The notes beneath the pieces are model-generated. The model saw nothing but the letters and a program-made list of their open reading frames with translations. It searched no databases and was not told where the DNA came from. Below are positions 3,401 to 6,400 of a stretch of DNA of 64,000 nucleotides, one piece after another (the first letter of the stretch is position 1; each line of letters begins with the position of its first letter). The translations under genes were made by a program, and so were the position numbers. The DNA comes from Synchiropus splendidus (lineage: Eukaryota > Chordata > Actinopteri > Syngnathiformes > Callionymidae), in the NCBI RefSeq assembly GCF_027744825.2, contig NC_071345.1, positions 8,701,501 to 8,765,500 of the forward strand, written 5' to 3'.

Positions 3401-6400
3401 CGCACCTCTCGTCTTCATATCCTCTGTTATCACATCCAGGAACCTAAATGGCTGTCTTCGGTACTTCCATGTCTAACATTGTTCGACCAACATGTCCACC
3501 TGGAGTCTGGCCTCCCTAACTTGGTCTCCAAAGCTTCCAAAGTGAGCTGTTCTTCTCATGAACTTGTCACTAATCTCGTCTGTCCAAGTCACTACCAATG
3601 AAAACCTGAGCATTTTCCGATCTTATGTCAGAGCTACTGTCTCTAACCCACACACACACCATGGCAGGTCTCAGTACTGTCCTGTAGAGCAGGGGTTCTT
3701 AACCTTTTTGATCTCGTGGCCCTCCTTTCCCTGAAAAATGGGCCTGTGGCCCATTCAAGTAGTAGAAGTGATTCATTACTCTTGATTTCATTTGTGATCA
3801 ATAACCATATTTAATCTAATTCCACGTAAACAAACCAAAACCTTGTGAAATGACATGAAACCCTGCGATCATGGCCTATTTGTCATCAAAAGTCCAACCA
3901 GCAGCCGAACCAGGTGCAAGTCATGTACATCAAATTCACTGAAGAAAAAAGGAAAAAAATACCTGTTGAGAAAATTGGAAAAACTGAATAAAATTCAGAA
4001 TAAAATAAATATAATAAAACCACGTCTAAATAGCATAAAATAAAATTATATATTTTATTTTAACTCCAAAGAAGTTATAAGTGAAATGTAAATAAAAGTA
4101 TCGCCATTTCAAAACTTCAAGCATCACTTTCTTTTTCATTTTTTTTCTTTTCAAGAACTTCTCCACAGTTGGTAACTATCACAGATTTGCAGCTGTCAAG
4201 TCAATTCAGTGACACACTGAAGCGGCCCTCTCGGAGGCACTTGTGGCCCAACCATGGGCCCAGGCCCTGTGGTTAAGCACCACTGCTGTAGAGCTTCCCT
4301 TTCACTCTAGCTACCTGTTAATAGGAACCAGTGCTTCGCTAACAGGCAACAGAAGACACAACATTGTTGTCTAATTAAAGGTAGATTCCTGGAGCGCTAT
4401 TGAGGACACAGTTACAGGTATAGATTCTGAAAACCACTTTCAAACCTCAAACAAAATAATTTGCTTCAGCCTAAGAGAGAGATCGATAATGCTATTCCTT
4501 TTAATTTAGCTTTGAATCAATAAAGCATCTCTTACGGTGCATCACTGAGGATAAGAGTCGCAGCAACTCTGAATTAGTTCTTATAGTTAAACAAAAGGAA
4601 GCAAAATAAAATGTAAAGTCATGTTATCAGGCCGATATTTTTAGGTCAGTTTCGATCTTGAGTGGGAGCTCACCAGCTTCACCAGTGGGAATACAAGAGT
4701 ATATATGGATTTCGCCTCCTCTCATATAGAAGTTCTGCCTTCTGTGCGGCTGAGTAACACCATGGTAAAAGAAGCCCTCAGTCGCCTTGATATCAAGTTG
4801 TGGTTTGGTTCTGACTGAAGTGTGAGGGTGAGGACAGAGGCGGACAGGAGGACGTGCGGGACAGTCGGGACATGGAGCGGAACAGAAACAATGCGGGCGG
4901 TGGAGACTTTGTCGAGCCATGCGATGGAGTCGTGTGTTTACCCCCTGACATAGATGTCAGACATCTTCTCTCCTGTCATGAAAGCATCGTCTTCTAGAAT
5001 TACGTCATCAGTGTTCCAAATAACAACACGAAGCTCAAAGCTAGACATCAGCAGAGCATTGACCGGAGAAGAGAAGAGAGGACAACAGACAGGAGACACG
5101 CCACAGACACAGACGGGAACAGACGACACGGACGCCACACACACAAACGGAAAATGGAAACAAAAAGAACAAAAATAAATGGTTAACTGCCAAACAAAAA
5201 CCACGACACGCAGCTCACACCCACGGACGCGGAGCGGAGGCTGCGTCCCGCTGTACGTACCCCCTGACAAATATGTCACTGGACTTTTCCCCAGTGAAGT
5301 AATCATCGTCCTCCAGTATTACTTCGTCTGTATTCCAAATAATCACCCTGAGCTCATATCTGGTGAGGAGGGGAGGAAGGGACACACACAGTTGGACTTG
5401 TATCTGTCAGTGGATTAGCAGCTGGCTAGTCAGTAACTCACCACCACTTCACCAGGGAACTAAACTACATACTGACTCAAGGTAAAGCCATCATTTGTGT
5501 TTTAGATCACAAAAAATTATGTCTTTTGGTTTATTTCATCGGTCCCACCTCTTTGGTTTCCGTGGCGATATGTCGATGGCGGGTCCGGGAGCCGGCATGT
5601 CCATTGGAAACATGTCCACCCACATCTCAATACGGCCCTGCGGGAGAGCGAGTGTCAGGATCCAGGTGGAGAGGTCCGGAGGAGAGCAGCTCCTCCTCAC
5701 CTGCTCGATACCGGGCTTGTCTGGATTCAGCAGCGGCCGGGTCTCCACGTGTTCGGGAACCAGTTTGCATCCCACCCTGGGGATTTCCTCCCAGTGGTTC
5801 AGCACCGTCAGAGCCAGATGCTCCTCCGTCTGCTTCTTCAGACCTGCGGAGGAAGACGAGGCACCAAAGTGCACCAAGAGAACTTAAATATAACACAAAG
5901 AAAACTTCCAGAGCCCACACAACTTTGTCTCAGCTGACTCGCAGCGACTCTGAGAGAGATGGAGACACAGAGAGGCGTCTGGGAGCTGACGACTGTGGCT
6001 GTTAACTCTCACAGTTTCAGAAGAGTCTTATACCGTTCTCATCCTCCATCTCTGTCGCTCCGGTGAAGATCCGGTTGGCCACCTTGACTTTCCCTCCTGG
6101 TCCGTAATGAGGTCCCTCAATTTTGGCGTCCTTGACCAGCTTGGCCAGAATTTGACTGGGCTTCATTGGGTCCCGCCAGACATTGTAACCGTGACTGAGA
6201 AGAGGAGAAAGACGTTCCTTTAAAAGTGAGCTCAGTGAGAAGGAGCTTAAGAGGAACAGCAGAGGTTCTGACGGAGAAGCTCACACAGAGTAGTTGGAGG
6301 AAATCCCGCATGTTGCTCGGTATTTGCTGTAGAAGCGATTCTCTAGGTCGATTTTGGTCTCTCCGATGAGGTCGTCGGTGCCGACCAAGTCCCAGTCGTA

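What the first reader, a model, noticed from the sequence alone, without database searches (positions are those of the whole stretch)
4942..5359. Duplicated, probably mutually exclusive exons in the otoferlin C2F domain
Two 99-bp exons 220 bp apart (5359-5261 and 5040-4942) have intact splice sites, the same entry phase (one base) and exit phase (two bases), and encode 24/32 identical residues. The junction residue also switches (Arg with 43a, Ser with 43b). Nearly all shared codons differ at silent positions, so the duplication is old and both copies have been under protein-level selection. Differences fall in strand 1 and loop 1 of C2[15 protein letters not shown] versus [14 protein letters not shown]. 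Copy 43a is the mammal-like form; the 43b motif [10 protein letters not shown] resembles dysferlin. Using one copy or the other would make two otoferlins that may differ in Ca2+/lipid binding by C2F. I am not aware of such a pair in mammalian OTOF.
Basis: partly seen in the sequence, partly recalled or inferred. Interest (0 to 1): 0.85.

Follow-up and report, generated by a model that had tools for sequence, protein, structure and literature searches.

The report
Ancient duplicated exon in fish otoferlin
This fish gene for otoferlin, the presumed calcium sensor of hair-cell synapses, carries two alternative versions of the exon that encodes a membrane-inserting calcium loop; the second version is nearly unchanged from lamprey to bird but was not seen among the mammalian proteins listed, and no description of it turned up in the open papers searched.

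Summary
Two 99-bp exons (5359-5261 and 5040-4942, minus strand) share splice phases and encode versions of one 33-residue segment, 24 of 33 identical: strand 1 and loop 1 of C2G ("C2F" in six-domain naming). The pair is not local to this fish. Among 210 proteins listed by three database searches, 198 carry the 43b form, from lamprey, sharks, sturgeon, bichir, teleosts, amphibians, lizards, a turtle and an eagle; the only mammals listed (12 rodent proteins) carry 43a alone. Four residues differ consistently: mouse D1745 to A/G, F1747 to M/L, S1752 to M, F1756 to Y. Loop-1 Ca2+ ligands are kept. So 43b should retune the membrane-inserting tip rather than abolish Ca2+ binding (inference). "Mutually exclusive" is not established: 68 of the 210 proteins (35 species) are annotated with both exons in tandem, and the predicted branch point lies 78 nt from the 43a donor, above the ~50-nt steric limit. 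The genome's other otoferlin copy has one such exon. Verdict: an ancient, probably alternatively spliced exon pair of a known kind, apparently undescribed in otoferlin. RNA evidence is missing.

The parts
5261..5359 (-). exon 43a: copy with the better splice sites, encodes (R)[32 protein letters not shown](G)
   Evidence: splice sites and translation; 30 of 34 residues identical to the solved otoferlin and 30 of 34 to the C16 copy
4942..5040 (-). exon 43b: second copy, encodes (S)[32 protein letters not shown](G)
   Evidence: 198 of 210 listed database proteins carry this form
5041..5260 (-). 220-bp intron between 43a and 43b; the last 144 nt before its AG hold no AG; TTAAC branch-point candidate with A at +78 from the 43a donor and 143 from the 43b exon, followed by a T-rich tract; two UGC at -18 and -13
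5549..5637 (-). exon 42 (upstream partner, ends ...AAG AG)
   Evidence: gene model
1099..1340 (-). exon 44 (downstream partner, starts G TGG CTG AAG)
   Evidence: gene model; own-genome match
1341..4941 (-). 3601-bp intron 43b-44 with interspersed-repeat matches; the same intron in the C16 copy is 66 bp
248..19353 (-). otoferlin gene (otofa-type), 38 exons modelled with consistent phases; a few modelled starts (e.g. 8148, 13163) are doubtful; further 5' exons lie to the right
   Evidence: 210 of 210 listed proteins closer to this gene than to the C16 copy

Best explanation
The otofa-type otoferlin gene carries a tandem-duplicated exon that arose before the split of cartilaginous and bony fishes and perhaps before the lamprey split. 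Splicing chooses 43a or 43b (sometimes perhaps both) and so produces otoferlins that differ in strand 1 and loop 1 of the last C2 domain (C2G). 43a, with the better acceptor and donor, is the default; 43b, with a weaker site set behind a long AG-free pyrimidine-rich stretch, is the regulated copy that needs cell-type-specific help. Both versions keep the loop-1 Ca2+ ligands (mouse E1742, D1743, D1754). 43b replaces a loop-tip aspartate by Ala, a membrane-inserting Phe by Met/Leu and Ser1752 by Met, so it should change how readily the loop enters the membrane at a given Ca2+. The mammals seen, and the second otoferlin copy in this genome, have only the 43a type. Shown: sequence, phases, conservation, consistent differences, one exon in the paralog. 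Inferred: default/regulated roles, loop function. Not shown: any transcript.
For: Anatomy exact. 43b in 198 of 210 listed proteins; 130 have 43b alone, 68 have 43a+43b, 12 have 43a alone; taxa from the listings. 43b identity to the window copy is 29/33 in lamprey and 30/33 in two sharks, while identity over the aligned protein is 68% and 69-75%. At two columns not used for sorting the forms, 43b has A/G at 1745 (192/6 of 198) and M/L at 1747 (179/19), against D and F in all 80 43a copies. Both exons stand in one protein model in catshark, sturgeon, turtle, lizard and 31 teleost species. Six species (Solea solea, S. senegalensis, Doryrhamphus excisus, Mugil cephalus, Hippocampus zosterae, Acipenser ruthenus) are annotated with both tandem and 43b-only forms. 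Loop residues from the mouse cryo-EM text. The 43b acceptor has the longest AG exclusion zone of 38 acceptors, 144 nt; exons with zones of 100 nt or more are more often alternative in human data (PMC1431707 passages). C16 introns of 73 and 66 bp leave no room for 43b.
Against: No RNA evidence; the proteins are mostly gene models clustered at 90%, and only the best 120 of each search were seen. 43a-only isoforms of fish otofa were not seen (the queries were 43b) and are assumed. Forms were sorted by residues 1752-1756, so those two differences are partly by definition. The long AG-free zone is not significant given composition (P 0.056 for a shuffled intron, 0.14 within the zone), and the 43b pyrimidine count (10 of 17) is ordinary for this gene (others 7-16). 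Only 43b was seen in lamprey. The mammals seen and the C16 copy do without 43b. Both structure predictions failed (pLDDT 35), so the loop effect rests on a published structure of the 43a form.
Confidence: 0.68

Rival explanations
1. Strictly mutually exclusive exons, joint splicing being blocked because the 43b branch point lies too close to the 43a donor, as in alpha-tropomyosin and OGDH.
For: Short intervening intron (220 bp), longest AG exclusion zone of 38 acceptors (144 nt), TTAAC plus T-rich tract at its upstream end; such distant branch points enforce exclusion of OGDH exons 4a/4b (PMC7969005 passages).
Against: The branch-point candidate is at +78, above the ~50-nt threshold; the gene model holds several introns of 60-67 bp; 68 of 210 proteins, 35 species, are annotated with both exons.
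Confidence: 0.12
2. Joint inclusion is a functional product: a C2G 33 residues longer, with two copies of strand 1 and loop 1.
For: Tandem forms annotated in 35 species, frame kept.
Against: Some tandem models look mechanical: the turtle model also strings two last exons together, and two of the 68 (P0067, P0121) have a faulty stretch before or in 43a; a doubled strand would be expected to disturb the C2 fold (inference; prediction failed).
Confidence: 0.09
3. The two exons are functionally equivalent; 43b survives as a neutral alternative.
For: Both keep the loop-1 Ca2+ ligands; the mammals seen and the C16 copy do without 43b.
Against: The same residues stay distinct from lamprey or shark to bird and teleost while silent sites are near saturation (dS 1.9 against dN 0.21).
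Confidence: 0.08
4. 43b is a dead or cryptic exon kept by chance, or an assembly artefact.
For: No read data were available here.
Against: Open frame, splice sites intact, found in 198 of 210 listed proteins across vertebrates.
Confidence: 0.02

Closest known systems
Tandem-duplicated exon substitution events / mutually exclusive exons (e.g. OGDH exons 4a/4b, alpha-tropomyosin, ACTN1/4 EF-hand exons)
   Same: Adjacent homologous exons of equal length and phase, ancient, short intervening intron with a long AG-free pyrimidine-rich stretch, alternative versions of a Ca2+-related element (passages)
   Different: Predicted branch point not within the steric limit; joint inclusion widely annotated; not seen in mammals, so outside human catalogues (the letters OTOF do not occur in the main text of PMC9741552)
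Known mammalian OTOF splice variants (exons 6, 31, 47/48, mouse 6b, 10b)
   Same: Same gene; alternative isoforms with tissue bias (PMC7768390 passages; PMC10227054 passages)
   Different: None in the passages seen concerns exon 43; the term 'exon 43' occurs in neither text
Dysferlin and myoferlin C2G loop 1
   Same: 43b shares GEKMSDIYV with dysferlin
   Different: In 5 of 5 other ferlin loci fetched from this genome (10 kb each; gene names inferred) only one such exon was found, and in three of them the loop is one residue shorter

Membership tests
tandem duplicated alternative exon pair | adjacent homologous exons of equal length and equal phase | tested here: met
   99 bp each, phases 1/2, 24/33 residues
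tandem duplicated alternative exon pair | each copy used without the other in some products | tested here: inconclusive
   43b-only in 130 of 210 listed proteins and 43a-only in 12 rodent proteins; 43a-only of this fish gene not seen; no reads
mutually exclusive exons | joint inclusion absent or rare | tested here: not met
   not met at annotation level: 68 of 210 listed proteins have both; frequency in RNA not testable here
distant-branch-point exclusion (tropomyosin/OGDH type) | long AG exclusion zone before the second exon | tested here: met
   144 nt, rank 1 of 38 acceptors; composition control weak
distant-branch-point exclusion (tropomyosin/OGDH type) | branch point closer than ~50 nt to the upstream donor | tested here: not met
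   best candidate at +78 by motif; branch point not mapped
SRRM4-dependent exon | UGC between pyrimidine tract and AG, and loss of inclusion without SRRM4 | tested here: inconclusive
   two UGC at -18 and -13, but 6 of 38 acceptors have two or more UGC in the last 40 nt; dependence untestable here
otoferlin C2G domain (six-C2 name C2F) | loop-1 residues E1742, D1743, D1754 that bind Ca2+ in the mouse structure | tested here: met
   present in both exons by alignment and residue numbering; in database 43b forms E 197 and Q 1, D 198, D 198 of 198

The most novel reading that the evidence does not exclude
Vertebrates other than mammals have two functional otoferlins at ribbon synapses, switched by choosing between two versions of the membrane-inserting Ca2+ loop of C2G, with cell-type-specific splicing (possibly SRRM4-driven) setting the Ca2+ or membrane sensitivity of release in, for example, lateral-line versus inner-ear hair cells, neurons or photoreceptors; mammals lost the switch.
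Probability: 0.33. Interest if true: 0.83.

Novelty: new member of a known kind. Interest (0 to 1): 0.63.

Why it matters
Otoferlin is the presumed Ca2+ sensor of hair-cell release and a deafness gene, and the structural and mouse work seen here used the mammalian (43a) form. A second loop version conserved from lamprey to bird means that fish, frog and bird hair cells may run on a different or mixed sensor, that zebrafish otofa experiments may need isoform control, and that nature supplies a pair of proteins differing in a handful of residues in one loop with which to test what C2G does in release.

Tried and rejected
Structure prediction of a tandem protein (P0016 with 20 rows) and of a 43b-only protein (P0122 with 25 rows) gave mean pLDDT 35.0 and 34.6 and was not used; no fold search was made. 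A steric (distant branch point) explanation was tested and not favoured. The SRRM4/UGC idea is only a lead. The peptide tree of 33 columns is too short to root the duplication (three ferlins fall among 43b and two beside 43a), so the claim of one old duplication rests on shared residues and taxon spread, not on the tree. The residue numbers printed are too low by 3, and the C16 comparison there used AG instead of AA at the junction codon. One search compared 7 43a and 10 43b types chosen by hand; one search recounts on all 210. A second 43b at DNA level was looked for in the genome and not found, nor a second such exon in 5 of 5 other ferlin loci.

Literature: ten searches of the held open library, nine naming otoferlin or otofa/otofb and one on branch points. 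Listings and passages seen gave no description of this pair; most listed papers were not opened, and subscription papers and preprints are not covered. I saw passages of PMC12526402 (and its section 8 in full), PMC12288785, PMC3464207, PMC7768390, PMC7969005, PMC1431707, PMC7140416, PMC10227054, PMC9741552 and PMC12264198; no paper was read whole.

Full report
What was claimed and what is there. Each is 99 bp, preceded by AG and followed by GT, enters with one base and leaves with two, and joins exon 42 (5637-5549) to exon 44 (1340-1099) in frame. The junction residue is Arg with 43a and Ser with 43b. The two encode 24 of 33 identical residues; 10 codons are identical, 14 differ silently and 9 change the residue. 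Nei-Gojobori distances are dS 1.9 and dN 0.21, so silent sites are near saturation while the protein is held. The statement that nearly all shared codons differ is too strong (14 of 24).

The gene. A 38-exon model with consistent phases was built for the minus strand from 19353 to 248, guided by the second otoferlin copy of the same genome; a few modelled exon starts (8148, 13163) are doubtful. The window lies at C12:8701501-8765500 of a 583-Mb genome. The other copy, on C16, has a single 99-bp exon 43 of the 43a type between introns of 73 and 66 bp, which leave no room for a second 99-bp exon. 43b DNA has no other match in the genome. In 5 of 5 further ferlin loci fetched (C1, C3, C6, C9, C10) only one such exon was found. 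Several database proteins with 43b are named "Otoferlin a", so the window gene is probably otofa.

Which domain. The mouse cryo-EM paper (PMC12526402, section 8 read in full) lists E1742, D1743 and D1754 as loop-1 Ca2+ ligands of C2G and F1746 and F1747 as loop-1 aromatics that insert into or lie near the membrane. These five fit the solved otoferlin sequence of exon 43 ([13 protein letters not shown]; that this chain is the mouse protein is taken from the paper). In 43b the three ligands are kept; D1745 becomes Ala (Gly in some), F1747 Met (Leu in some), S1752 Met and F1756 Tyr. Tyr is found at the last position in all five other ferlins of this genome and Met at 1752 in three of them, so at these two sites 43b, not 43a, keeps the commoner ferlin state.

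How old and how widespread. Three searches of a 5.8-billion-protein set gave 1843, 1183 and 1804 significant matches, of which the best 120 of each were listed, 210 distinct proteins in all. Of the 210, 130 contain 43b alone, 68 contain 43a followed by 43b, and 12 contain 43a alone; the 12 are all rodents (names from the listings). The forms were sorted by residues 1752-1756, and none of the 210 was left unsorted. At columns not used for sorting, 43b has A (192) or G (6) at 1745 and M (179) or L (19) at 1747, against D and F in all 80 43a copies; E1742 is E in 197 and Q in 1 of 198, D1743 and D1754 are D in all. 43b is present in a lamprey, two sharks, a sturgeon, a bichir, many teleosts including zebrafish, eleven amphibians, three lizards, a turtle and a golden eagle (counted by hand from the listings). 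The lamprey form is 29/33 and the shark forms 30/33 identical to the window's 43b, against 68% and 69-75% over the aligned protein. The third query carried 43b between hamster flanks, so a mammalian 43b protein should have ranked above the rodent 43a proteins; none was listed. A strongly diverged mammalian 43b, or one not annotated, would have been missed. The lamprey protein shows 43b only; whether it also has 43a was not seen. All 210 are closer to the window gene than to the C16 copy, but they were picked by 43b queries.

Are they mutually exclusive? The frame is kept when both are included, and 68 proteins from 35 species are annotated so; in 19 species they are numbered isoform X models (counted by hand). 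Six species are annotated with both the tandem and the 43b-only form. Some tandem models look mechanical: the turtle model also strings together two last exons, and P0067 and P0121 are faulty before or in 43a. The intron between the copies has a 144-nt AG-free end, the longest of 38 acceptors in the gene (next 140 at the last exon, then 75), with a TTAAC and a T-rich tract at its upstream end. Shuffling shows this zone is not very unlikely for its composition (P 0.056 and 0.14). Zones of at least 100 nt go with alternative splicing in human (PMC1431707, passages), and in OGDH distant branch points under about 50 nt from the upstream donor enforce exclusion (PMC7969005, passages). Here the distance is 78 nt, and this gene model holds introns of 60-67 bp. 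So steric exclusion is not supported; choice by regulation is more likely.

Regulation. By simple consensus scoring 43a has the better acceptor (pyrimidines at 16 of 17 positions against 10 of 17; 10 is ordinary for this gene, where others run from 7 to 16), and its donor (GGG|gtacgt) keeps the +5 G that the 43b donor (GGG|gtaaac) lacks (sequence). 43b therefore looks like the regulated copy. Two UGC triplets sit between its pyrimidine tract and AG (-18 and -13), the arrangement described for SRRM4-dependent exons in the mouse inner ear (PMC3464207, passages), but 6 of 38 acceptors here have two or more UGC in the last 40 nt, so this is a lead only.

Mechanism proposed. Choosing 43b keeps the Ca2+ ligands but removes one acidic side chain and one aromatic one at the loop tip and adds methionines. 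The most likely result is a C2G that still binds Ca2+ but enters or releases the membrane differently, shifting the Ca2+ dependence of docking or fusion. The sequence facts are shown; the functional step is inference from a structure of the 43a form. Two structure predictions made here were too poor to use.

Known or new. Mammalian OTOF variants in the passages seen concern exons 6, 31 and 47/48 and mouse exons 6b and 10b (PMC7768390 and PMC10227054). OTOF is not named in the main text of a study of human tandem duplicated exon events (PMC9741552), as expected if mammals lack 43b. Nine literature searches naming otoferlin or its fish genes showed no description of the pair. The isoforms do exist as gene models in public databases. 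I file it as a new member of a known kind, interesting for its gene, its age and its apparent loss in mammals.

Noticed in passing
window 428-248 and L020:1143-1319 (minus strand, just outside the window): Two candidate last exons encoding transmembrane C-termini, like mammalian OTOF exons 47/48; the acceptor of the first has the second longest AG exclusion zone of the gene (140 nt).
   Followed up: partly
L009:6177-6353, 6521-6697, 7021-7197: The C16 otoferlin copy carries three candidate transmembrane last exons in tandem, against two seen for the window gene.
   Followed up: partly
window about 4200-3705 and 20975-20840: Segments of one interspersed repeat, also matched on C16, sit in the 3.6-kb intron 43b-44 and upstream in the gene; the C16 intron 43-44 is only 66 bp.
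   Followed up: no
P0068 (hamster otoferlin isoform 1): This database protein repeats the start of exon 44 ([20 protein letters not shown] twice), probably an annotation artefact that raised its score.
   Followed up: partly
P0126, P0127, P0128 (Podarcis muralis): 43b is preceded by unrelated sequence, so these lizard models appear mis-joined at exon 42.
   Followed up: no
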